DNA of 64,000 nucleotides from Fimbriimonadales bacterium (GCA_025998675.1 AP024673.1:957221-1021220); one strand, 5' to 3'; counted from the first letter of the stretch, positions 1 through 26,859 are shown. The notes: generated by a model not told the origin, from the letters alone. A program made the numbers and translations.

Positions 1-2607
1 TTTCTGGAGCTGGTGCGTCCCATCCCGTTCCTCAACGGCGGGCTGTTTGAATGCCTCGATGAGGTCTACCGCAAAGAGGAGAACCGCCCCGACCGCCGCA
101 TCGACGGCTTCTCCGACCACCCCAAAAACCCCCTGCATGTGCCCGACTATCTCTTCTTCAGCGAGGAGCGCACGGTAGACATCAGCCGCGCCTTCGGCGA
201 GAAACGCACCGCCCGCGTGCGCGGACTCATCCACATCCTCAAACGCTACAACTTCACCGTGACCGAAAGCACGCCGCTGGACCAGCAGGTCGCGCTCGAC
301 CCCGAACTCGCGGGCAAGGTGTTCGAAAACCTGCTGGCAGCCTACAACCCCGAAACCGCCACCACCGCCCGCAAAGCCACTGGCTCCTACTACACCCCGC
401 GCGAGATTGTCGACTTTATGGTCGAAGAGTCGCTGATTCGCGTGCTACACGACGCGCTTCAGCAAGCGCACCCCGACGCGCCCCACATAGAACCCCGCCT
501 GCGCCAGCTGTTCGACGAAAACGACGACGCCAACCCCTTCAACGAAGCCGAAACCCGCGCGCTCATCGACGCTCTCGACGCGCTCAAAACGATTGACCCC
601 GCCTGCGGCTCCGGCGCGTTCCCGATGGGCATGCTGCACAAACTCGTGTTCCTGCTGGGCAAACTGGACCCCCGCAACGAACGCTGGAAAGAGAAACAGA
701 TCGAACGCGCCCGCGCCCTCCCCGGCCCCGAAGTGCGCGAGAAGGTCATCGAGGACATCGAAAACGCCTTCGAACGCAACGAGCTGGACTACGGGCGCAA
801 ACTGTTCCTGATCGAAAACGGCGTCTACGGCGTCGACATCCAGCCCATCGCCGTGCAGATTGCCAAAATGCGCTTCTTCATCGCGTTGATTGTAGACCAG
901 CAGCCCGACCCCAGCCAGCCCAACAGCGGCGTCCGCCCGCTGCCGAACCTCGAAATCCGATTCGTCGCCGCCGACACGCTCAAGCGCATCCGCCAGAAAC
1001 CGCAGGAGGCGATTCCCGACCCGCACATCGAGCAGCTCAAAGCGCAGATTCGGCAGGTGCGCCAGCAATACTTCACCGCCCGCACGCCCGAAACCAAGCA
1101 GAAGCTGCGCCAGAAAGACGCCGACCTGCGCCAGCAACTCGCCCAGGAACTCAAAAAAAGCGGCTGGGACGACGCCGCCGCCCAAAAACTCGCCCGCTGG
1201 AACCCCTACGACCAGAACGCCTCCGCCCCCTTCTTCGAACCCGAATGGATGTTCGGCGTTTCGGAAGGCTTCGATATTGTCATCGGCAACCCGCCCTACA
1301 TCCAGCTCCAGAAAGCCTATGACGCCAAACGCAAATACGCCGACCTCTATATCGACGAAGGCTACTTCACCTTCGACCGCAGGGGCGACATCTACTGCCT
1401 CTTTTACGAGCGCGGGCTGGAGCTGCTCCGCTCTGGCGGAATCCTGGCGTACATCACCTCCAACAAGTGGATGCGCGCGGGCTACGGCGAAAAACTGCGC
1501 CAGTATTTCGCCGAAAAAACCAACCCCCTGCTGCTGATTGACCTCGGACCGGGCGTGTTCGAAAGTGCCACGGTGGATACGAACATCCTGCTGGCGCAAA
1601 AAGCATCCAATCAGAAGCGCCTGCACGCGCTGACCTACACCGACCGCGCGAAGAGCCTGCGCGAGGCGACGCAGACCCAGAGCGTCGTGCTGAACAACCT
1701 CTCCACAGGCGCATGGTTCATCGGCGGCGACGCCGAACAGCGACTAAAAGGGAAAATCGAGGCTCTCGGCAAACCCCTGCGCGACTGGGAGGTGAAAATC
1801 TATCGCGGCATTCTGACGGGCTTGAACGAGGCGTTCATTATTGACACGGCGACGCGCGAGCGAATTTTAGACGCCTGCAAAGACAACGCCGAACGCCAGC
1901 GCACCGAAGCGCTTATCAAACCCATCCTGCGCGGACGCGACATCAAACGCTACGCCTACGAGTGGAAGGGGTTGTGGGTGATTGGTACCTTTCCAGCCCT
2001 GCGTCTCAATATCGAGGACTACCCTGCAGTCAAGAAGTATTTCCTTGAACACTTCGATATCCGCCAGTTAGAGCAATCAGGCAAAAGGTATCCAGAGCTC
2101 GGCTTTTCTGCGAGAAAGAAGACAGGCAATAAATGGTTCGAAACACAAGACCAGATTGCCTACTACGCCGAGTTTGAGAAGGAGAAGGTGGTGTGGCAGG
2201 AGTTAGCACAGGGGGCGCAGTTTGCCTACGACCCTGAGGGTCGGTTTTTCGTGTCCAACACGGCTTACATCCTCACAGGTAAGAACATCAAATATTTGTT
2301 AGCCTATCTCAATAGTAATCTTAATCTGTATGCTTATGAAAAATGGTACTGCACAAAGATTGGCAGTAGTGGTGTACGCTGGTTGAATCAGCATGTTTTG
2401 GATATTCCAGCGCCCCCCATCACCCCTGAAAACCAGTCGCTGGCAGCGCAGATTGAGTCGCTGGTGGAGCAGATTCTGGCGCGGAAGCGGGGCAACCCGA
2501 ACGCCGACACCGCCGAACTGGAGCGCGAAATCGACCGCCTCGTCTACCAGCTCTACGACCTCACCCCCGAGGAGATCAGGCTGGTGGAATCGAGCGTGCG
2601 TAGGTGA
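1..2607 (+). CDS. Eco57I/TaqI-type DNA adenine methylase (type IIG or PglX-like), copy A, 5' partial
   Basis: The reading frame is open from the first base, so the N-terminal part lies outside the window; compared with the full copy at 3147-6692 about 310 residues are missing. It predicts an N6-adenine DNA methyltransferase of the Eco57I class. Visible are the YTPREIV motif, SAM-binding motif I (DPACGSGAF), motif II around YGVDIQPIA, and catalytic motif IV (GNPPY). A TaqI-like C-terminal specificity region follows. Its recognition segment contains GTFPAL and RKKTGNKWFETQDQ, typical of one TaqI-C recognition-domain type, and differs completely from the matching segment of the next gene. The nuclease part of a type IIG enzyme would be N-terminal and cannot be judged here. 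The gene could be a restriction-modification enzyme or a BREX PglX-like methylase; no other BREX gene is visible. Confidence 0.88.
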   Translation, partial: FLELVRPIPFLNGGLFECLDEVYRKEENRPDRRIDGFSDHPKNPLHVPDYLFFSEERTVDISRAFGEKRTARVRGLIHILKRYNFTVTESTPLDQQVALDPELAGKVFENLLAAYNPETATTARKATGSYYTPREIVDFMVEESLIRVLHDALQQAHPDAPHIEPRLRQLFDENDDANPFNEAETRALIDALDALKTIDPACGSGAFPMGMLHKLVFLLGKLDPRNERWKEKQIERARALPGPEVREKVIEDIENAFERNELDYGRKLFLIENGVYGVDIQPIAVQIAKMRFFIALIVDQQPDPSQPNSGVRPLPNLEIRFVAADTLKRIRQKPQEAIPDPHIEQLKAQIRQVRQQYFTARTPETKQKLRQKDADLRQQLAQELKKSGWDDAAAQKLARWNPYDQNASAPFFEPEWMFGVSEGFDIVIGNPPYIQLQKAYDAKRKYADLYIDEGYFTFDRRGDIYCLFYERGLELLRSGGILAYITSNKWMRAGYGEKLRQYFAEKTNPLLLIDLGPGVFESATVDTNILLAQKASNQKRLHALTYTDRAKSLREATQTQSVVLNNLSTGAWFIGGDAEQRLKGKIEALGKPLRDWEVKIYRGILTGLNEAFIIDTATRERILDACKDNAERQRTEALIKPILRGRDIKRYAYEWKGLWVIGTFPALRLNIEDYPAVKKYFLEHFDIRQLEQSGKRYPELGFSARKKTGNKWFETQDQIAYYAEFEKEKVVWQELAQGAQFAYDPEGRFFVSNTAYILTGKNIKYLLAYLNSNLNLYAYEKWYCTKIGSSGVRWLNQHVLDIPAPPITPENQSLAAQIESLVEQILARKRGNPNADTAELEREIDRLVYQLYDLTPEEIRLVESSVRR

Positions 2608-2746
2608 AGCTGCTGGCGCTTATGGAGGCAGGTTTTTTCACACCCTGCCTGTAGCAAAGACGGCTGAACCCGTGCCTGTAATACCAATTAGCGTGTCAGA
2701 CTTCGTAATTGCCGTGCGTTTCCAGCCAGAGCCACGCGCGTCTTTG

Positions 2747-2861
2747 CCCTCACCCCCAGCCCCTCTCCCGCGCGGCGGGAGAGGGGAGCCGCGCAAGCCT
2801 TGCACAACACGCTATCCCCCTCTCCCAACGGGTTGGGAGAGGGGGACAAAGGGGGTGAGGG
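2747..2861. repeat. Nested GC-rich palindromes
   Basis: The outer arms CCCTCACCCCC (2747-2757) and GGGGGTGAGGG (2851-2861) are perfect complements. Inside are two further perfect hairpins: 2760-2771 with 2775-2786 (12 bp) and 2816-2829 with 2832-2845 (14 bp). The result is a three-way cruciform-like structure. Sequences of this CCCTCACCCCCAGCCCCTCTCCC type are common interspersed repeats in many bacteria. It may act as a terminator for the methylase gene, although no T-run follows. Confidence 0.8.
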
Positions 2862-2945
2862 CTACAGGCGTCGGTAATTAACGAACTCTGACGGCGCATT
2901 TGGTATAATACCTATCGGCGGCTCATAGTTCGCAAAGCAGCAATG

Positions 2946-3003
2946 TATGGAGTGCGGAAGCGGAGCTTCCGCGCGGCTGAAGCTCCCGCTTCCGCACTCC
3001 ATA
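2946..3003. repeat. REP-like palindrome, copy 1
   Basis: The left arm begins TATGGAGTGCGGAAGCGG and the right arm is its complement ending CCGCACTCCATA, an 18-bp perfect stem. Related GAAGCGGGAGCTTC-containing palindromes occur at 7031-7088, 26881-26912 and 31785-31843, so this is a dispersed family. Confidence 0.8.
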
Positions 3004-3146
3004 GTCGCAGGGTGCGGGCAACAAGCACGCCTCTGCAGGCGCGTGCGAGGCAATTAACGAACTCTGACCGCGTAGTTGGTATTAAACCTCCCTAACAAAC
3101 CCTATCGGGTATCCTTCTATCATCCGATAATCACAGAGGGTGCGCC

Positions 3147-6100
3147 ATGCAGAATCTCTACGCGCCGATTGAGCGGATATTGCATAGTGAACGGTTGGGC
3201 GAGCGGCTGGGCGAGCTGTTTTGCAGCGTGCTGAACTGGGGCGCGCTGCGTGCGCAACCCCTCACGCTCAAAGTCAACGCGCCCGTGAATCAGACGTTGA
3301 CCCTGTACCCGATTGCCCAGATGAGCGGCTTGCCCGTGTTCCGGGTGGACTGGCACGCTGCCCGCCTGCCTTCTCTTACCGCCCGACGCGCCGTCTATCG
3401 CGCCCTCGCGCCCACCTACACCGAACACCTGCTCTGCTACAGCAACGCCAATCACTCCGAACTCGTTTTCACATGGGCGCGCCAACGCCCCGACGGCAAA
3501 ACTGAACTCCGCTCGCTCCCGTATACCCGCGGCGCCCCCGCCCGCACCACCCTCGAACGGCTCGCCGAGCTCCACTTCAGCATGCAAGAGATCCTGCAGG
3601 GTGAACCCACCCTTCCTGTTGTGCTGGATAAGCTCAACCGCGCCTTCGATGTCGAAAGCCTTTCCAAACAGTTCTATCAGGAGGTCGCCAACTGGTACTT
3701 CTGGGCATGTCAGGAAGTGCAGTTTCCCACACCCACCTCCCGCGAAGAGACCAACCGCGACGCCTACATCGCCCAGAGCGTCATCCGCCTCATCACCCGC
3801 CTGCTGTTCTGCTGGTTCCTCAAAGCCAAGGGGCTGATTCCCGACGACCTGTTCGACGAGGGCGCGCTGGCGAGCCTGCTCAAAGGCAACGAGCCGCTCG
3901 CCGCCAGCCAGCAAACCCGCTTCTACAAAGCCATCCTGCAGAACCTCTTTTTCGCGACGCTGAACCAGGAGCAAAACCAGCGCGCCTTCCGCAAGCGCAA
4001 CCCCAGCGGACTGGACCCCCATCGCGGCATTACCAACCTCTACCGCTACGAAGACCTCTTCATAAACCCGAACGACTTCCTGAATCTGGTGCGCCCCATC
4101 CCGTTCCTCAACGGCGGGCTGTTCGAATGCCTCGATGAGGTCTACCGCAAGGAGGAGAACCGCCCCGACCGCCGCATCGACGGCTTCTCCGACCACCCCA
4201 AAAACCCCCTGCATGTGCCCGACTATCTCTTCTTCAGCGAGGAGCGCACGGTAGACATCAGCCGCGCCTTCGGCGAGAAACGCACCGCCCGCGTGCGCGG
4301 ACTCATCCACATCCTCAAACGCTACAACTTCACCGTGACCGAAAGCACGCCGCTGGACCAGCAGGTCGCGCTCGACCCCGAACTCGCGGGCAAGGTGTTC
4401 GAAAACCTGCTGGCAGCCTACAACCCCGAAACCGCCACCACCGCCCGCAAAGCCACTGGCTCCTACTACACCCCGCGCGAGATTGTCGACTTTATGGTCG
4501 AAGAGTCGCTGATTCGCGTGCTACACGACGCGCTTCAGCAAGCGCACCCCGACGCGCCCCACATAGAACCCCGCCTGCGCCAGCTGTTCGACGAAAACGA
4601 CGACGCCAACCCCTTCAACGAAGCCGAAACCCGCGCGCTCATCGACGCTCTCGACGCGCTCAAAACGATTGACCCCGCCTGCGGCTCCGGCGCGTTCCCG
4701 ATGGGCATGCTGCACAAACTCGTGTTCCTGCTGGGCAAACTGGACCCCCGCAACGAACGCTGGAAAGAGAAACAGATCGAACGCGCCCGCGCCCTCCCCG
4801 GCCCCGAAGTGCGCGAGAAGGTCATCGAGGACATCGAAAACGCCTTCGAACGCAACGAGCTGGACTACGGGCGCAAACTGTTCCTGATCGAAAACGGCGT
4901 CTACGGCGTCGACATCCAGCCCATCGCCGTGCAGATTGCCAAAATGCGCTTCTTCATCGCGTTGATTGTAGACCAGCAGCCCGACCCCAGCCAGCCCAAC
5001 AGCGGCGTCCGCCCGCTGCCGAACCTCGAAATCCGATTCGTCGCCGCCGACACGCTCAAACGCATCCGCCAGAAACCGCAGGAAGCCCTCCCCGACCCGC
5101 ACATCGAGCAGCTCAAAGCGCAGATTCGGCAGGTGCGCCAGCAATACTTCACCGCCCGCACGCCCGAAACCAAGCAGAAGCTGCGCCAGAAAGACGCCGA
5201 GTTGCGCCAGAAACTCGCCGACGAACTCAAAAAAAGCGGCTGGGACGACGCTACCGCCCGCATGCTCGCCCGTTGGAACCCCTACGACCAGAACGCCTCC
5301 GCGCCGTTCTTTGACCCCGAATGGATGTTCGGCGTCTCAGAGGGCTTCGATATCGCCATCGGCAACCCGCCCTACATCCAGCTCCAGAAAGCCTATGACG
5401 CCAAACGCAAATACGCCGACCTCTACCTCGACGAGGGCTACGCCACCTTCGACCGCAGAGGCGACATCTACTGCCTCTTTTATGAGCGCGGACTGGAGCT
5501 GCTGCGGGAAGGGGGTATCTTAGCCTACATCACCTCCAACAAGTGGATGCGCGCGGGCTACGGCGAAAAACTGCGCGCATACTTCGCCAAGAACACCAAC
5601 CCGCTGCTGCTGATCGACCTCGGACCGGGCGTGTTCGAAAGCGCGACGGTGGACACGAACATCCTGATACTGCAGAAAGCGCCCAACCAGCAGAACCTGC
5701 GCGCGCTGACCTACACGGACCGCGAAAAGAGCCTGCGCGAAGCGACCCAGACGCAGGGCGTCGTGTTGCACAACCTCTCCGCAGGCGCATGGTTCATCGG
5801 CGGCGACGCCGAACACCGGCTGAAACAAAAAATCGAAGCCGTCGGCAAACCCCTGCGCGAGTGGGATGTAAAAATCTATCGTGGCATACTGACAGGCTTG
5901 AACGAGGCGTTCATCATCGACACGGCGACGCGCGAGCGAATTTTAGACGCCTGCAAAGACGACGCCGAACGCCAGCGCACAGAGGCGATTATCAAGCCTA
6001 TCCTGCGCGGACGCGACATCAAACGCTACGCCTACGAGTGGAAAGGGTTGTGGGTGATTCTGGCAAAATTCGGATTTTACAAAGAGGCGCACCTCTACCC

Positions 6101-6692
6101 TGCTATTGTAGCGCACCTCAGCCAGTACGAAAAGGCGCTGAAGAATCGCGGGCAGTGCCGCTACGGACGCACGGGCAAGAAGACCAACGCCGACTACCCC
6201 GGTCAGCATCACTGGCTGGAACTCGATAATAACCCGCACGACGACTACTTAGCCGAGTTTGAGAAGGAGAAGGTGGTGTGGCAGGAGTTAGCACAGGGGG
6301 CGCAGTTTGCCTACGACCCTGAGGGTCGGTTTTTCGTGTCCAACACGGCTTACATCCTCACAGGTAAGAACATCAAATATTTGTTAGCCTATCTCAATAG
6401 TAATCTTAATCTGTATGCTTATGAAAAATGGTACTGCACAAAGATTGGCAGTAGTGGTGTACGCTGGTTGAATCAGCATGTTTTGGATATTCCAGCGCCC
6501 CCCATCACCCCTGAAAACCAGTCGCTGGCAGCGCAGATTGAGTCGCTGGTGGAGCAGATTCTGGCGCGGAAGCGGGGCAACCCGAACGCCGACACCTCCG
6601 CGCTGGAGCGCGAAATAGACCGCCTCGTTTACCAGCTCTATGACCTCACGCCAGAGGAGATGGCGCTGGTGGAATCGAGCGTGCGTAGGTGA
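3147..6692 (+). CDS. Eco57I/TaqI-type DNA adenine methylase (type IIG or PglX-like), copy B, full length (1181 aa)
   Basis: This is a predicted N6-adenine DNA methyltransferase with its own specificity domain. In order: an N-terminal region of about 400 residues, the YTPREIV motif, motif I DPACGSGAF at residues 509-517, motif II near VYGVDIQPI, catalytic NPPY at 740-743, and a TaqI-like recognition region from about 960 to the end. The recognition segment at about 972-1034 contains ILAKFGFY and QYEKALKNRGQ; it is unlike the same place in copy A while both flanks match. A length near 1180 fits type IIG single-chain enzymes and also PglX. I do not see a convincing PD-(D/E)XK motif in the N-terminus, so nuclease activity is open. 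The ATG at 3147 follows CAGAGGGTG as a weak ribosome-binding site. Copies A and B probably methylate different sequences. Confidence 0.9.
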   Translation: MQNLYAPIERILHSERLGERLGELFCSVLNWGALRAQPLTLKVNAPVNQTLTLYPIAQMSGLPVFRVDWHAARLPSLTARRAVYRALAPTYTEHLLCYSNANHSELVFTWARQRPDGKTELRSLPYTRGAPARTTLERLAELHFSMQEILQGEPTLPVVLDKLNRAFDVESLSKQFYQEVANWYFWACQEVQFPTPTSREETNRDAYIAQSVIRLITRLLFCWFLKAKGLIPDDLFDEGALASLLKGNEPLAASQQTRFYKAILQNLFFATLNQEQNQRAFRKRNPSGLDPHRGITNLYRYEDLFINPNDFLNLVRPIPFLNGGLFECLDEVYRKEENRPDRRIDGFSDHPKNPLHVPDYLFFSEERTVDISRAFGEKRTARVRGLIHILKRYNFTVTESTPLDQQVALDPELAGKVFENLLAAYNPETATTARKATGSYYTPREIVDFMVEESLIRVLHDALQQAHPDAPHIEPRLRQLFDENDDANPFNEAETRALIDALDALKTIDPACGSGAFPMGMLHKLVFLLGKLDPRNERWKEKQIERARALPGPEVREKVIEDIENAFERNELDYGRKLFLIENGVYGVDIQPIAVQIAKMRFFIALIVDQQPDPSQPNSGVRPLPNLEIRFVAADTLKRIRQKPQEALPDPHIEQLKAQIRQVRQQYFTARTPETKQKLRQKDAELRQKLADELKKSGWDDATARMLARWNPYDQNASAPFFDPEWMFGVSEGFDIAIGNPPYIQLQKAYDAKRKYADLYLDEGYATFDRRGDIYCLFYERGLELLREGGILAYITSNKWMRAGYGEKLRAYFAKNTNPLLLIDLGPGVFESATVDTNILILQKAPNQQNLRALTYTDREKSLREATQTQGVVLHNLSAGAWFIGGDAEHRLKQKIEAVGKPLREWDVKIYRGILTGLNEAFIIDTATRERILDACKDDAERQRTEAIIKPILRGRDIKRYAYEWKGLWVILAKFGFYKEAHLYPAIVAHLSQYEKALKNRGQCRYGRTGKKTNADYPGQHHWLELDNNPHDDYLAEFEKEKVVWQELAQGAQFAYDPEGRFFVSNTAYILTGKNIKYLLAYLNSNLNLYAYEKWYCTKIGSSGVRWLNQHVLDIPAPPITPENQSLAAQIESLVEQILARKRGNPNADTSALEREIDRLVYQLYDLTPEEMALVESSVRR

Positions 6693-7170
6693 AGCTGCTG
6701 GCGCTTATGGAGGCAGGTTTTTTCACACCCTGCCTGTAGCAAAGACGGCTGAACCCGTGCCTGTAATACCAATTAGCGTGTCAGACTTCGTAATTGCCGT
6801 GCGTTTCCAGCCAGAGCCACGCGCGTCTTTGCCCTCACCCCCAGCCCCTCTCCCGCGCGGCGGGAGAGGGGAGCCGCGCAAGCCTTGCACAACACGCTAT
6901 CCCCCTCTCCCAACGGGTTGGGAGAGGGGGACAAAGGGGGTGAGGGCTACAGGCGTCGGTAATTAACGAACTCTGACGGCGCATTTGGTATAATACCTAT
7001 CGGCGGCTCATAGTTCGCAAAGCAGCAATGTATGGAGTGCGGAAGCGGAGCTTCCGCGCGGCTGAAGCTCCCGCTTCCGCACTCCATAGTCGCAGGGTGC
7101 GGGCAACAAGCACGCCTCTGCAGGCGCGTGCGAGGCAATTAACGAACCCTGACCGCGCAATTGATATAAC
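4077..7170 (+). repeat. Tandem duplication, copy 2 (methylase gene plus spacer)
   Basis: This is the second copy of the unit that begins before the window. Similarity ends near 7170, where the sequence runs into the promoter region of the UDP-sugar dehydrogenase. The spacer is virtually identical to that of copy 1, so the event is recent or the copies are being homogenised. Confidence 0.93.
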
Positions 7171-21256: not shown

Positions 21257-23463
21257 TCAAACAGCCCCGGCTGGCGCTCCGCCTGAATAATCGCCTGCGG
21301 CTTGGGAAACCGCGCCTCGAAATCGTCAAACAGCGGCTCCAGGCGCGCGGCGAACTTGTAGAGCTTGTCCACATAATGCTCGCGGTCTTCGTCGTCCGCG
21401 TACTCCTCCAGCAAGCCCAGACTGCCGTCGCGCCTGCGATAGACCAGAATGTAGTCGCCAATCTGGAAGCGCGTCGCCAGCGAATAGAGCGGGTGATTGG
21501 GCTGCTTGCTCTTCTGCGTGATACGCTCGCGTCGGCAGAGCTGCTCGATGCCAATCTCGCCGTTCAGGATGAGTCGCGCCAGCCGCTGGTACTCGGCGAC
21601 GACCTTCTCTGGCTCGCCGTTGAGCAGCCACTGAATCGCCTGATTGAGGAACTCGCGCCCGAACTTCTCGTCCGCGCGGGAGCGCAGCGACGCGCCCTTG
21701 AAGGTCAACTTGCCGTCGTAGCCCTGCAGCACATAGTTTTTCGTCTTCAGCGAGAGCATCGCCTTGTAGCGTCCATCATACGCCAGCCGAATGCCTTCAG
21801 GCAACACCGCGCCCACGCGCTCCACAAACGCAATCTCGTCCGCTTCCGTTTTCACCGCGTCCGGCGGCTGGAAGTAGACCCCATCGGTGTCGATCTCCAC
21901 CACCTGCCCGCCCTGCCGTTCGATTTCGTCGGCGATTTGTTTAACCAGCTCCTGCCCCGTGAGCGTCACCTGTTCGGCGGCGTCAAAATCATTAAAATTA
22001 AATGGTGCTGCTAAATATCCGTAATACGAGTTGATTAAAATCTTAAAAGAGTTCTGCAACCCATCCCAGTACGCCGCTTCGGCGCCCTGTGTCTTGCGGG
22101 CGCGCGCTTTGGCGTTCAGTCGCAGCTGGCGCAACCGCTCCAGTGTCGGCAGGAACACATTCAGATGGTCGGCGCTCGGCTTGATGGCGTACTTCAGCAT
22201 CACACTGGGGTACAGGCTCTCCACATCCGCTTTGACGATGCGCGGGATGAGTCCGACCTTTCGCACTTCGGTGTAGCCGCCGGGGTACTCGCGCGACTGC
22301 TGGGGCGTTGGGATGGCATACCCCGCCGCCAGATACGCCCGCAGAAAGAGCAGGTTCGCCTTCTCGCCCGTGCCGATGGTCGCCAGATTCTGCAGCGTGT
22401 CAGGCAGCATCTGACACTGGTAGAACTCGGTGGGCAGCGTCAGGTCGGCGAGGCGGCGCGTCTCATGCACATCCTGCAGGCAGTAGCGACGCACCGTTTC
22501 GGGGTCCGTGCGCCACAACTCGGCTATCTGCTCCCGCTCCAGATAGATACGGTCTGGCGCGGCGATGCCCAGCTGTTGCGTCGCCTCCTTGAGACCGTAG
22601 CTCTCCAGGTCGCCGCGTCCGATGTCGAACCGCTGCACGCTCAGGTAGGTGTCTATCAGATGGCGTCCGAAGGCGAAGGCAGGGCGGAAGGTTCGGCTGT
22701 TCGCGCCGATGATGCACTGGCGCGGCGCGCCGATGCGCAGCTCCGACCCGTCACGCCCCAGCCGCAGGGGCACGCCCATCGCCTCCGCACGCGCCACCAG
22801 ATACGGCAGGTCGAACCCGAACAGATTGTGCCCCTCAATCACATCGGGGTCCAGCGTCTGCACGCGCTCCACCAGCTGCTCCAGAATCCCTTTCTCGTCG
22901 CCGTCCAGCACAGCTTCGTAGCCGCGTGTGTCGCTGAGCGCAATCATCAGCACCTGCGCGCCGGGCTGGTCGGGCGCGAGCGTGGTGGTCTCGATGTCCA
23001 GCTGCAGCCGATGCAGGTCGTCGAAGGTCATCCCCTTGAACAGCGTCTTGCCCGACCACATCAGGTACTGGCGCGCGAAGGAGCCATAGGCGATAAGCTC
23101 GCGGTGTTCCTCGCGCAGGGCGCGGCGCAGGCTCTCGAACGCCTCGCGGTCGTCGCACCGCGCGAGATATTTGAGCATCCGCCGCCCCGATGACGCGCCC
23201 GCCAGCTCCTGCCATTCCACGCCCTGCATGCGCATCATCGTGTCGGTCAGCAGCCAGGGGCGGAACGGCTCGTCGTGGGTGCGCACACGCCCGCCCTCGC
23301 GCACAAACAGGCGGATGTGATGGTTGGTCGCTTCGACCGCAACGATAAAAGGCGTCGGGTCTTTGCCAAACAGCACGGGGTCGTACTCGATGGCAGGCGC
23401 AGCAGTGTTCGGCGTGTCCCCCGCAGGCTCCTCCAGCAACGGCAGCGCAGGCTGCTCGTACAT
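21253..23463 (-). CDS. Family B DNA polymerase with proofreading exonuclease (736 aa)
   Basis: The protein contains every core motif of an active family B polymerase. Exonuclease motifs: D156/E158 in LQLDIET, N213/D218 in GHNLFGFD, and Y327/D331 in YCLQDVHE. Polymerase motifs: A (D413 with SLYP at 417-420), B (K474 with NSYYG at 478-482), and C (DTD at 525-527). The C-terminus ends RQPGLFD, which matches the beta-clamp binding form Q-x-x-L-F and parallels the end of E. coli Pol II. At 736 residues it is slightly shorter than Pol II (783). A role in lesion bypass or repair synthesis is inferred. The ATG at 23463 lies 6 nt after a TATACT box. Confidence 0.93.
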   Translation of the reverse strand: MYEQPALPLLEEPAGDTPNTAAPAIEYDPVLFGKDPTPFIVAVEATNHHIRLFVREGGRVRTHDEPFRPWLLTDTMMRMQGVEWQELAGASSGRRMLKYLARCDDREAFESLRRALREEHRELIAYGSFARQYLMWSGKTLFKGMTFDDLHRLQLDIETTTLAPDQPGAQVLMIALSDTRGYEAVLDGDEKGILEQLVERVQTLDPDVIEGHNLFGFDLPYLVARAEAMGVPLRLGRDGSELRIGAPRQCIIGANSRTFRPAFAFGRHLIDTYLSVQRFDIGRGDLESYGLKEATQQLGIAAPDRIYLEREQIAELWRTDPETVRRYCLQDVHETRRLADLTLPTEFYQCQMLPDTLQNLATIGTGEKANLLFLRAYLAAGYAIPTPQQSREYPGGYTEVRKVGLIPRIVKADVESLYPSVMLKYAIKPSADHLNVFLPTLERLRQLRLNAKARARKTQGAEAAYWDGLQNSFKILINSYYGYLAAPFNFNDFDAAEQVTLTGQELVKQIADEIERQGGQVVEIDTDGVYFQPPDAVKTEADEIAFVERVGAVLPEGIRLAYDGRYKAMLSLKTKNYVLQGYDGKLTFKGASLRSRADEKFGREFLNQAIQWLLNGEPEKVVAEYQRLARLILNGEIGIEQLCRRERITQKSKQPNHPLYSLATRFQIGDYILVYRRRDGSLGLLEEYADDEDREHYVDKLYKFAARLEPLFDDFEARFPKPQAIIQAERQPGLFD

Positions 23464-23469
23464 ACTTTC

Positions 23470-23475
23470 AGTATA
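23470..23475 (-). promoter_or_regulatory. Predicted -10 box (GGTATACT), leaderless type
   Basis: On the minus strand AGGTATACT is followed by 6 nt and the polymerase ATG, so the predicted transcription start coincides with the A of the start codon. Confidence 0.6.
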
Positions 23476-23504
23476 CCTGAGCGCCGTTGCAGTGAGTGTT
23501 CAGC

Positions 23505-24323
23505 CTACGGCGCAGCCTCAGAACGCTTTGTAGCGGCTTTCAACCCGCGCAGGTACTCGCCAATCGCCGTCTGCCAGTTAGGCGAATCGGCGAACTCGTG
23601 CAGGTACTGCACCAGCTGGCTGCCCACCACCGCGCCGTCGGCAATTCGGGCAATCTGGCGCACATGGTCGGGCTTGGAGACGCCGAAGCCGACGGCAATC
23701 GGCAGCGCGGTGTGTTCTCGAATGCGGGCAATCAGGTCGGGCAGGTCGGGCGGCAGCTGGTCGCGCGCGCCCGTGACGCCCGTGCGCGAGACGCAGTAGA
23801 CGAACCCCTGCCCGCGCGCCGCCACGAGCTGTATCCGCTCCGTCGTGCTGGTCGGCGTGAGCAAAAAGATGGGCTGCAGGGCGCGCCGCTGGGCGCAGGT
23901 CAGCCACTCGTCCGCCTCGTCGGGGGGCAGGTCGGTCATCAGGCACGCAGTGAAGCCCGCCGCAGCCGCCTCCTGCGCGAACCGCTCCAGCCCATACCGC
24001 TGCACAGGGTTGTAGTAGGTGAAGGCAATCAGGGGGATTCGCAGGCTGGGGGCGCACGCAGCGACGGTCTCCAGCACGCGCGGCAAGCTCGCGCCATGCT
24101 GCAGCGCGCGGTGCATCGCCGCCTGTATCACGGGTCCATCCGCCAGCGGGTCGCTGAATGGAAACCCCACCTCCACCATGTCCACGCCCGAATCCTGCAA
24201 CAGGCGCAGGATGTCGGGCATCCGCTCCAGCGACGGGTCGCCCGCCGTGATATAGGCTATCAGCGCGGCTTCGCCCCGCGCCCGCAGCGATTCGAAAACC
24301 GTCTCCAGCCGTTCCGTGCGCAT
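23505..24323 (-). CDS. trpA: Tryptophan synthase alpha chain (272 aa)
   Basis: The alpha subunit cleaves indole-3-glycerol phosphate to indole and glyceraldehyde 3-phosphate, passing indole to TrpB. The TIM barrel shows the active-site Glu in VEVGFPFSDPLADGP, the Asp in LMTDLPPDEADEW, and the phosphate-binding part GFGVSKPDHV. It usually sits beside trpB, but neither trpB nor other trp genes are in the window. An open frame upstream extends past the promoter, but I choose the ATG at 24323, 9 nt after TACAAT and just before the conserved start RTERLETVFESLR. Confidence 0.96.
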   Translation of the reverse strand: MRTERLETVFESLRARGEAALIAYITAGDPSLERMPDILRLLQDSGVDMVEVGFPFSDPLADGPVIQAAMHRALQHGASLPRVLETVAACAPSLRIPLIAFTYYNPVQRYGLERFAQEAAAAGFTACLMTDLPPDEADEWLTCAQRRALQPIFLLTPTSTTERIQLVAARGQGFVYCVSRTGVTGARDQLPPDLPDLIARIREHTALPIAVGFGVSKPDHVRQIARIADGAVVGSQLVQYLHEFADSPNWQTAIGEYLRGLKAATKRSEAAP

Positions 24324-24332
24324 GCAGGGGGG

Positions 24333-24338
24333 ATTGTA
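24333..24338 (-). promoter_or_regulatory. Predicted -10 box (GGTACAAT) of trpA, leaderless type
   Basis: On the minus strand GGTACAAT is followed by 9 nt and ATG. A divergent box of the same type lies at 24382-24387. Confidence 0.6.
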
Positions 24339-24381
24339 CCTTTTTCGCCACAGCAGCGCACAAAACCCCGTAAAAATGTGG

Positions 24382-24387
24382 TACAAT
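24382..24387 (+). promoter_or_regulatory. Predicted -10 box (GGTACAAT) of a secreted-protein gene
   Basis: GTGGTACAAT lies 35 nt before the start codon; the transcript would have a leader of about 29 nt with a good AAGGAGG site, in contrast to the leaderless trpA opposite. Confidence 0.55.
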
Positions 24388-24422
24388 AGAGACATCCGAT
24401 TACTTATTGAAGGAGGCACACC

Positions 24423-25547
24423 ATGAAACGCTACGCTTGTGTAGTGGGTATTGTGCTTGCTGTCCTGACTGGCAGCCACGCTCAGACGCTGACTTCCATC
24501 GGGAACGGAATTGCCGGCGATGGAAGATTGACCATCCCCGTTGACCCGTTTGGCGCATGGTACGCAAACTTCTCCACGGGCGCGAACCGCGGCGAGTTTT
24601 ACGACCCTGCTGGATCGCTGGGAGTAGACTATCCCACCTTCGCCACGGGCACTTACCTGTTTGTTGGAACCAGCTACCGTGTTGCGCTCAATCAGGAGCC
24701 CGGATGGGGCGGATCGACCTCATGGGCGGGCAACCTGACGGCGACGGTCGTTTCTGGACCCACGGCGTTTGACTACGCCTACAACGATGGCGTGAACGAC
24801 ACCGCGACCGCGAGCTTCACCGTCGCCAGCGCGGATAGTGTGGTGAACTTGAGTGTGAACATGTTGACCGCCGTTCGACGCCCCTCATATGTCGTCGTGC
24901 GCTACCAGATTACCAACAACTCCAGCAGCCCGATAGACTTCAAGCTCTATCGCGCCTGGGACCTGGATATTCTCTGGGATGGAAACTACGAGAACGACGA
25001 GGTGTGCGGCGGCGTTTATGGCGGGCAGGGCTATCCGTCTCAGGGCGAGGTTGGCAACTCTGCATTGCGCTTCGCGCTGAGCAGTCTCAACCCGATTAAC
25101 GGCTATGCTGCGGTGAAACGCACCTATCGCGACAGCAGCTGGGACCCCAGCTGCCCCACGATGGGATACGGAACGGACATTCAGGAGTGGAACGCCTACG
25201 GTATCCCCTCGTGCTGGGTGAACTATGTCGCCTACTACGGCATCGGACCCGGATGCAGCGGCGGCGCCTTCGGCGACGGGCATATCGGTGTGGAGGCGCC
25301 CGTTTCGCTGGCGGCGGGCGGCAGCGCGACCGTGACCTTCATCCACACCTACGGCGCGAACCAGCCCGTGACCTGCAACCTGGCGGATGTGAACCTCGAC
25401 GGCGTGGTCGATGACGCCGACCTGCTCGCGGTGCTGTTCGCCTTCGGCAACGGCGCGCCCGATGCGGACGCCGATGTAAACTTCGACGGCGTGGTGGACG
25501 ACGCCGACCTGCTGGAGGTGCTGTTCAACTTCGGTAGCTCGTGCTGA
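24423..25547 (+). CDS. Secreted protein with C-terminal dockerin-like repeats (374 aa)
   Basis: The protein has a signal peptide (basic start KRYA, hydrophobic core, cleavage probably after SHA) and an aromatic- and Asn-rich beta domain of about 290 residues that I cannot name. The tail has two copies of a calcium-loop-like repeat: DVNLDGVVDDADLLAVLFAFG and a close second copy ending VLFNFGSSC. Each has the D-x-N/D-x-D-G-x-V-D-x-x-D-L-L pattern of type I dockerin repeats. In genomes without cellulosomes such tails are thought to help sort or anchor proteins at the surface. AAGGAGG precedes the ATG. The next gene carries the same tail. Confidence 0.85.
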   Translation: MKRYACVVGIVLAVLTGSHAQTLTSIGNGIAGDGRLTIPVDPFGAWYANFSTGANRGEFYDPAGSLGVDYPTFATGTYLFVGTSYRVALNQEPGWGGSTSWAGNLTATVVSGPTAFDYAYNDGVNDTATASFTVASADSVVNLSVNMLTAVRRPSYVVVRYQITNNSSSPIDFKLYRAWDLDILWDGNYENDEVCGGVYGGQGYPSQGEVGNSALRFALSSLNPINGYAAVKRTYRDSSWDPSCPTMGYGTDIQEWNAYGIPSCWVNYVAYYGIGPGCSGGAFGDGHIGVEAPVSLAAGGSATVTFIHTYGANQPVTCNLADVNLDGVVDDADLLAVLFAFGNGAPDADADVNFDGVVDDADLLEVLFNFGSSC

Positions 25548-25563
25548 CGCGCGCAGCCGTGCG

Positions 25564-25600
25564 ACTCGTGCGACGGGACGCTACTCCCCGTCGCACGAGT
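25564..25600 (+). terminator. Perfect 14-bp hairpin after the secreted-protein gene
   Basis: ACTCGTGCGACGGG (25564-25577) pairs with CCCGTCGCACGAGT (25587-25600) around a 9-nt loop, 17 nt after the stop codon. No T-run follows, so factor-independent termination is uncertain. The rest of this 187-nt gap shows nothing clear. Confidence 0.6.
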
Positions 25601-25734
25601 ATCCCCTTCAGGGAAGCCTTGTCAGGAACTTTCTTCAAATACACCGTCCCCTGCCAATAACAGCATCAGACAATCAACGCCACTCGTGCATCCTGAAGGC
25701 GTCTAATTAGGCGCAATTGGCTGGAGGTTCGCAA

Positions 25735-26859
25735 ATGAGAGGCGTTCTGTTGACGGGACTATTGACGCTGAGCGCCCTTACCTATGGGCAGCACTATCAG
25801 TATCGTGTGCTGATTGGCGATCGTGACGCCGAGCGCGGCGTACTCTACTACGACTATCCCACAGGCAACTTCGGCGCGCTGGGCATTTGCGACCCGTCGA
25901 ACACCGCGAGCGACTTCTATTACGGAATCGCTGTCCACCAAGCACGGGGCGAAATCTGGGTATGCAATGTGCTGCGCAACCGAATCGATATTCTGGACTT
26001 TGACGGGAACTGCCTGCGCACGATGTCGTCGGGGTTCTCTGGTCCGCACGGAGTCGCCATCCACCCCAACGGCGATAAAGTGGTGTTTTCGCACAACACT
26101 TTCGGCATGGCGGAATACACCATTTCCACTGGGCAGTGGCGTCCGATTCTGTTCCGATACTTCGATGATGCTCTGGGAGCCTATGTGGTCTATCTCGATA
26201 GGATTTATGGAATAGAGTGGCATCCCGATGGGAGCTATCTGTACGCGGCGGCGCTGGGCGGGATTGCCGAGATAGTCGCCGATGCCGACGGCTCGCTGAC
26301 AAACACAGTGCGCTGTATGAGTGGCTCCAGCGCAATCGCAACCCCGTGGGATGTAGCGGTAATCAGCAGTGATGCGCAGACGACACGCCTGGCAGCCACC
26401 GACGACGACTTCGCTGGTTCAAACCAGCCGCGTTTGCGGCGTATCGGCTTATACGAGTTCGACAGGGAGCCATCTGACTGCCGACGATTGGGCAATCTTG
26501 CAGCGCACCCGGATAGCGCGGGCGGGCAACTGTTCGGAATTGCCCATGCGCCTGACGGTACTCTGTGGGTGAGCAATTACCACAGCGGGCGCGTGTACCA
26601 GCTGGACGCTAGCGGCGCCCTGCTGCGCACGGTACAGGCAGGCAACCCCAAACTGGGCGTCGGGGTTGCAATCCTGCCCTGGTGCTGGAGCCACGACGGC
26701 GATGTGAACGCCGACGGCTGCGTGGACGACGCCGACCTGCTATCTGTGCTTTTCAACTTTGGCGCAGCCGAGCCTGGCATACGCGAGGATGTCAACTGCG
26801 ACGGCATAGTGGACGATGCGGATTTGCTAACCGTACTGTTCAACTTCGGCTCGTGCTAA
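25735..26859 (+). CDS. Secreted beta-propeller-like protein with dockerin-like tail (374 aa)
   Basis: After the signal peptide (MRGVLLTGLLTLSALTYG) the protein resembles NHL/SMP-30-type propellers, with segments such as GPHGVAIHPNGDKVVFS, IEWHPDGSYLYAAA and GIAHAPDGTLWVSNY. It ends with two dockerin-like repeats (VNADGCVDDADLLSVLFNFG and a second copy ending LFNFGSC), as in the preceding gene. The function is unknown; binding of a surface ligand is a guess. The ATG at 25735 has GGAGG 7 nt upstream. Its stop codon forms the left end of the palindromic element at 26858-26960. Confidence 0.85.
   Translation: MRGVLLTGLLTLSALTYGQHYQYRVLIGDRDAERGVLYYDYPTGNFGALGICDPSNTASDFYYGIAVHQARGEIWVCNVLRNRIDILDFDGNCLRTMSSGFSGPHGVAIHPNGDKVVFSHNTFGMAEYTISTGQWRPILFRYFDDALGAYVVYLDRIYGIEWHPDGSYLYAAALGGIAEIVADADGSLTNTVRCMSGSSAIATPWDVAVISSDAQTTRLAATDDDFAGSNQPRLRRIGLYEFDREPSDCRRLGNLAAHPDSAGGQLFGIAHAPDGTLWVSNYHSGRVYQLDASGALLRTVQAGNPKLGVGVAILPWCWSHDGDVNADGCVDDADLLSVLFNFGAAEPGIREDVNCDGIVDDADLLTVLFNFGSC

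What the first reader, a model, noticed from the sequence alone, without database searches (positions are those of the whole stretch)
1..6692. Tandem DNA methylases that differ mainly in a recognition segment
The two copies look identical over long tracts (about 76-979 versus 4152-5055, and 2167-2510 versus about 6249-6595) and carry scattered substitutions elsewhere. They are unrelated only at 1984-2166 versus 6060-6248, inside the TaqI-like target-recognition region. One copy has the GTFPAL...KTGNKWFETQDQ type and the other the FGFYKE...QYEKALKNRG type. TaqI-C domains are known to read DNA sequence, so the pair should have two specificities. Near-identical flanks in direct repeat also allow recombination that would shuffle or delete a specificity, a possible phase-variable switch.
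Basis: partly seen in the sequence, partly recalled or inferred. Interest (0 to 1): 0.72.

Follow-up and report, generated by a model that had tools for sequence, protein, structure and literature searches.

The report
Twin methylases sharing half a recognizer
A bacterium carries two side-by-side copies of a DNA-tagging enzyme that differ in one exchangeable half of the part that reads the DNA sequence; relatives in gut and mouth bacteria appear to swap the same half by flipping DNA, which may explain methylation patterns that earlier work could not assign.

Summary
Two intact m6A methyltransferase genes (A: genome 956297-959827, window end 2607; B: window 3147-6692) lie in a 4.1-kb direct duplication bounded by a dispersed repeat. 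They are a mosaic: identical runs of 908, 556, 483 and 345 bp alternate with blocks at dS about 0.34, which indicates gene conversion. Only aa 971-1035 are unrelated.

The recognition region has two modules. A and B differ in module 1 and share module 2, so I predict motifs that differ in one half. Across 56 relatives the modules recombine almost freely.

The neighbour is a PLD-SNF2 helicase-nuclease, adjacent in 60 of 66 relatives with room. The pair is a restriction-like system. It is not a Type IIG enzyme with its own nuclease, nor BREX, BR or DISARM.

Switching in this strain is not shown: no serine recombinase, no silent cassette. In Bacteroidales relatives, an inverted silent cassette with different modules, inverted repeats at the module borders and a serine recombinase form an apparent 2x2 specificity switch. 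Two Prevotella species have the expressed and silent module 1 exchanged. The same layout in P. intermedia 17F could explain its unassigned motifs. I found no published description of this switch in the papers searched.

The parts
1..2607 (+). Copy A of the m6A methyltransferase, 3' part (full ORF genome C1:956297-959827, 1176 aa; starts about 0.9 kb upstream of the window)
   Evidence: Pfam Eco57I and TaqI_C
3147..6692 (+). Copy B of the m6A methyltransferase, complete, 1181 aa
   Evidence: Pfam Eco57I and TaqI_C; AF2 model pLDDT 88
1984..2160 (+). Recognition module 1 of copy A (GTFPAL...RKKTGNKWFETQDQIAYY type)
   Evidence: only unalignable stretch; similarity 0.90 to L042, 0.87 to L034
6060..6245 (+). 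Recognition module 1 of copy B (FGFYKE...GQCRYGR...GQHHWLELDNNP type)
   Evidence: nearest L058 at 0.56; similarity to A's module 0.07
2161..2511 (+). Recognition module 2 and C-terminal region of copy A, identical to copy B (345-bp exact run from 2167)
6246..6596 (+). Recognition module 2 and C-terminal region of copy B, identical to copy A
76..983 (+). 908-bp identical (converted) tract in copy A, covering the start of the methyltransferase core (motif I DPACGSG)
4152..5059 (+). The same 908-bp identical tract in copy B
2679..2908 (.). Dispersed repeat element Ra (about 230 bp, over 20 copies in the genome)
2928..3082 (.). Dispersed repeat Rb, middle copy, at the duplication junction; the others are at genome 956077-956232 (upstream of A) and window 7013-7167
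7013..7167 (.). Dispersed repeat Rb, downstream copy, right end of the duplicated unit

Best explanation
The locus is a two-component restriction-like defence system: a divergently transcribed PLD (HKD)-SNF2 helicase-nuclease (genome 952601 to about 956020, just outside the window) and a large gamma-class m6A methyltransferase of the Eco57I/TaqI-C kind. The methyltransferase gene has been tandemly duplicated between copies of a dispersed repeat. Its recognition region has two exchangeable modules. The copies hold different module 1 (aa 971-1035) and the same module 2, so they should methylate two related asymmetric motifs sharing one half. The helicase-nuclease would then attack DNA that lacks the marks. 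Gene conversion has repeatedly made the copies identical outside the heterologous module. Shown: anatomy, mosaic, purifying selection on both copies, module modularity across the family, helicase linkage. Inferred: two active specificities, a shared partner, and how each half-site is read. Both specificities are held side by side here; relatives in Bacteroidales appear to switch the same modules by DNA inversion.
For: Both copies keep motif I DPACGSG and motif IV NPPY, and the diverged blocks have dN/dS 0.15-0.17. Both have an identical 196-bp upstream region. Between the copies module 1 has normalised similarity 0.07 and module 2 has 1.0. In 56 relatives 45 module combinations occur; 9 of 12 shared module-2 types pair with two or more module-1 types, and same-module-1 pairs share module 2 only 5% of the time. 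The window's module 2 is paired with a third module-1 type in L036, and L042 carries copy A's combination on a 48%-identical backbone. A helicase lies within 2.5 kb in 60 of 66 relatives with room, 43 directly upstream on the same strand, and P0003 orthologues sit next to a methyltransferase in about 20 phylum genomes. The Prevotella intermedia 17F enzyme of this layout methylates adenine in an asymmetric motif when cloned (PMC5608340). The model's best solved matches are CamA, M.BseCI, BrxX and MmeI.
Against: No methylome, expression or phage data for this strain. Specificity differences are inferred from sequence. The helicase is divergent here rather than in an operon, so functional pairing in this genome rests on adjacency. 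One copy could be silent or redundant in practice.
Confidence: 0.75

Rival explanations
1. Phase-variable switch in this strain: recombination between the direct repeats deletes, duplicates or converts a copy often enough that the population carries mixed specificities.
For: 4.1-kb direct repeats with long identical tracts and clear past conversion; Bacteroidales members of the family carry an apparent specificity switch.
Against: No serine recombinase in the genome, no silent or partial cassette, both genes complete. Diverged blocks at dS 0.34 survive, so whole-gene homogenisation is not frequent.
Confidence: 0.1
2. Plain tandem duplication in which one copy is decaying or unexpressed, and the differing module is a relic of an imported allele with no second specificity.
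For: Tandem duplications are common. No close homologue of this methyltransferase was found in same-genus genomes, so the locus was probably gained recently; another relative has a tandem pair with the same recognition region and one truncated copy (L039).
Against: Both ORFs are intact; diverged blocks show dN/dS about 0.16 with intact motifs; the module-1 types of both copies occur in intact genes elsewhere.
Confidence: 0.12
3. Two independent Type IIG enzymes, each cutting and methylating on its own, with no role for the helicase.
For: PADLOC's best models are REase_MTase_IIG (E 3.5e-181), and REBASE-style annotation of the P. intermedia relative is Type IIG (PMC5608340).
Against: No conserved nuclease residues in the N-terminal 165 aa (first invariant residue is F176); no significant structural match of the N-terminal domain to a nuclease; conserved PLD-SNF2 neighbour.
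Confidence: 0.12

Closest known systems
Prevotella intermedia 17F Pin17FIII locus (PMC5608340)
   Same: Large m6A methyltransferase next to an SNF2/RAD54 helicase; asymmetric motifs; a second methylase-like gene adjacent
   Different: There the second gene is a convergent partial copy of about 305 aa (silent-cassette layout as in L109), not a full-length direct copy. The authors left GGNYAG and CCNYAG unassigned.
Phase-variable Type I systems with duplicated hsdS (Atack et al. 2020, PMC7394358; domain movement, PMC3077401)
   Same: Two-part recognition region whose parts recombine to give new specificities
   Different: Here the recognition modules are inside a single-chain gamma methyltransferase with a helicase-nuclease partner; no separate S subunit
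BREX PglX/BrxX
   Same: About 1200-aa m6A methyltransferase; model resembles BrxX
   Different: No BREX partner genes; NCBIfam BREX models far below cut-off (95.8 versus 500 bits)
Type-2 BR systems (DUF499-centred; PMC12839542)
   Same: HKD-Swi2/Snf2 helicase plus N6-methyltransferase
   Different: No DUF499 ATPase or DUF3780 gene was matched beside the window locus
DISARM class 1 (DrmD and DrmMI)
   Same: SNF2 helicase plus adenine methyltransferase; weak matches to both
   Different: No DrmA, DrmB or DrmC neighbours; the helicase carries its own PLD domain
CamA of Clostridioides difficile
   Same: Best solved structural match (E 9.7e-29); single-chain m6A enzyme with asymmetric target
   Different: An orphan methylase without a helicase partner or duplicate (own knowledge)

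Membership tests
Type IIG restriction-modification enzyme | Gamma-class m6A methyltransferase with its own target recognition domain in one chain | tested here: met
   Eco57I, N6_Mtase and TaqI_C matches; motifs I and IV
Type IIG restriction-modification enzyme | Endonuclease domain with a conserved active site in the same chain | tested here: not met
   No charged residue conserved above 64% in aa 1-165 and no invariant column before F176; structure search of the N-terminal domain gave no match at E 0.001 or better, with only weak hits that include PD-(D/E)XK nucleases
BREX (PglX) | Scores above the curated PglX cut-off and has BREX partners (PglZ, BrxC) | tested here: not met
   95.8 bits versus cut-off 500; no BREX genes among ten neighbours
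Type-2 BR system | HKD-Swi2/Snf2 helicase and N6-methyltransferase | tested here: met
   PLDc_2, SNF2 and Helicase_C in P0003
Type-2 BR system | DUF499 ATPase and DUF3780 gene in the locus | tested here: not met
   Neighbours are efflux genes, a TetR regulator, a small protein of PADLOC family PDC-S70, UDP-glucose dehydrogenase and others
DISARM class 1 | DrmA, DrmB and DrmC beside DrmD and DrmMI | tested here: not met
   No such neighbours; NCBIfam DrmD 138 bits versus cut-off 610
Invertible specificity switch (inverton) | Inverted partial copy with alternative recognition modules and a site-specific recombinase | tested here: not met
   Absent in the window genome for serine recombinases and recognition cassettes; met in Bacteroidales relatives
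Two-module recognition region | Modules assort independently among relatives | tested here: met
   45 combinations in 56 proteins; same-module-1 pairs share module 2 in 5%
Active restriction system | Methylation of two motifs and restriction of unmethylated DNA | not testable with these tools
   Needs methylome and phage or plasmid assays

The most novel reading that the evidence does not exclude
A widespread helicase-nuclease plus methylase defence system uses a two-module, half-site recognition region as an exchangeable unit. Bacteroidales lineages run it as a serine-recombinase-driven 2x2 combinatorial specificity switch (two inverted repeats, one before module 1 and one between the modules). 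The window's lineage instead holds two of the combinations side by side by tandem duplication. This would explain the three related motifs of P. intermedia 17F, two of them unassigned.
Probability: 0.5. Interest if true: 0.75.

Novelty: new variant of a known kind. Interest (0 to 1): 0.6.

Why it matters
It gives a testable reading of a common but unnamed defence system: half the DNA target is encoded by a short exchangeable module. It predicts which half of the methylation motif two genes should share, offers an explanation for unassigned motifs in Prevotella intermedia, and suggests that phase-variable methylation in Bacteroidales extends beyond Type I hsdS genes.

Tried and rejected
Assembly artefact: rejected, since the copies differ at 185 positions plus the module. 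More copies upstream: none, the upstream neighbour is the helicase. Silent cassettes elsewhere in the genome: the only further hit (G000:C1:1968465-1969148, 34.7 bits) is a distant methylase with a PD-(D/E)XK-like N-terminus by eye. N-terminal nuclease: no conserved active site, structure search inconclusive. BREX, BR and DISARM membership: not met. Polarising the gene-conversion tracts: not possible, as the nearest outgroup (Roseiflexus, L107) is only 58-59% identical and truncated. Rfam and promoter scans gave nothing useful for the locus. Tyrosine recombinases were not searched for in the window genome, so only serine-type inversion is excluded there.

Full report
The observation. The window starts inside copy A. 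The genome is one 2,987,958-bp contig and the window is C1:957221-1021220. With the upstream sequence, copy A is C1:956297-959827 (1176 aa) and copy B is window 3147-6692 (1181 aa). Excluding the unrelated stretch there are 185 differences in 3993 positions, but four identical runs of 908, 556, 483 and 345 bp. Uniform scatter gives a longest run of 121 on average and at most 368 in 20000 draws. The three diverged coding blocks have the same dS (0.33-0.35) and dN/dS 0.15-0.17, and the identical blocks have dS 0.013 or less. The simplest reading is one old divergence (a duplication, or an imported homologue), purifying selection on both copies, and several recent gene-conversion tracts. The 345-bp tract begins at the 3' border of the heterologous stretch.

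How the duplication arose. Homology of the two units begins and ends in a dispersed intergenic repeat (Rb), present upstream of A (956077), between A and B (960148) and after B (964233), all in direct orientation, with many further copies genome-wide. Unequal recombination between such repeats is the likely origin (inference).

What the genes are. Both proteins carry Eco57I, N6_Mtase and TaqI_C domains. PADLOC labels them Type IIG, but no nuclease active site is conserved in the N-terminal part, and a structure search of that domain found nothing significant, with only weak hits that include PD-(D/E)XK enzymes. The full model (pLDDT 88) best matches CamA, M.BseCI, BrxX and MmeI. Divergently beside copy A lies P0003, a PLD plus SNF2 helicase. 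In GTDB relatives, 60 of 66 loci with room have such a helicase within 2.5 kb, 43 directly upstream on the same strand. In the window's phylum P0003 orthologues sit beside a methyltransferase in about 20 genomes, with no duplicate seen. A Parabacteroides plasmid has the same pair, annotated SNF2-related protein and N-6 DNA methylase. Ten flanking genes include no BREX, DISARM or DUF499 component. I therefore treat the locus as a two-component restriction-like system.

Two recognition modules. Aligning 61 sequences shows two variable modules, at P0002 aa 971-1037 and 1046-1118. In A and B module 1 is unrelated (0.07) and module 2 identical (1.0). Among 56 relatives module similarity correlates weakly with the other module (r 0.13) and with the backbone (r 0.16 and 0.24). 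There are 45 combinations, and proteins sharing a module-1 type share module 2 in 5% of pairs against 4% overall. At stricter clustering the association is small but above the permutation 95% level, so assortment is near-free, not perfectly free.

Switching in relatives. In eleven Bacteroidales loci an inverted C-terminal fragment of about 300 aa follows the methylase (in L106 it is broken), and in nine of them a serine recombinase (PF00239 in the two tested) follows that fragment; L081 keeps only a short remnant of one. The readable silent fragments carry a different module 1 and module 2 from the expressed gene. Inverted repeats lie just before module 1 (up to 101 bp, up to 100%) and, in nine of the eleven, also between the modules (22-37 bp, up to 100%). 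Prevotella multiformis (L091) and P. vespertina (L106) are 94.8% identical over the gene's first 2.7 kb and share module 2, yet the module 1 expressed in one is the silent module of the other. In L106 that silent module is itself reversed relative to its flanks. This is comparative, not within-strain, evidence of switching.

Published link. P. intermedia 17F has a methylase of about 1117 aa (Pin17FIII, 22231-25584) followed 23 bp later by a convergent gene of about 305 aa (25608-26525), beside an SNF2/RAD54 helicase. Its methylome has GGNYAG, CCNYAG and GGYGAB, but the cloned gene gave only GGYGAB (PMC5608340). Read as GG/CC plus NYAG/YGAB, these are three of the four states of a two-module switch. 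That is my inference: I did not have the 17F sequence. Searches of the held papers found no description of this switch; subscription papers are mostly missing from that library.

What this says about the window. No serine recombinase and no further recognition cassette exist in the genome at the sensitivity used, so serine-recombinase inversion switching is not supported here. The best reading is two related specificities held side by side, sharing one nuclease partner, with occasional conversion or deletion possible by homologous recombination.

Noticed in passing
window 2679-2908 and 2908-3084; about 50 further places in the genome: Two families of dispersed intergenic repeats with palindromic cores (2815-2846 and 2946-3003 match their own reverse complement), mostly 80-91% identical between copies; no Rfam match.
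   Followed up: partly
L069, L081, L084, L085, L091, L096, L101, L103, L106, L109, L112: Inverted silent recognition cassettes downstream of the methylase in Bacteroidales, with a serine recombinase in most; an apparent 2x2 specificity switch.
   Followed up: yes
L066:7431-17265: A Desulfobacterales relative also has tandem direct methylase copies with different recognition regions and a third partial copy.
   Followed up: partly
L039:7516-19111: A Sericytochromatia relative has a nearly identical tandem duplication with the same recognition region, second copy truncated, and about 1-kb direct spacer repeats in between.
   Followed up: partly
L171:6424-9810 (G000:C1:1968423-1971809): A separate large methylase in the same genome with a PD-(D/E)XK-like N-terminus by eye; possibly a true Type IIG enzyme.
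   Followed up: no
L009:4920-5459 (genome 944919-945458): Small protein upstream of the helicase that matches the PADLOC candidate family PDC-S70.
   Followed up: no
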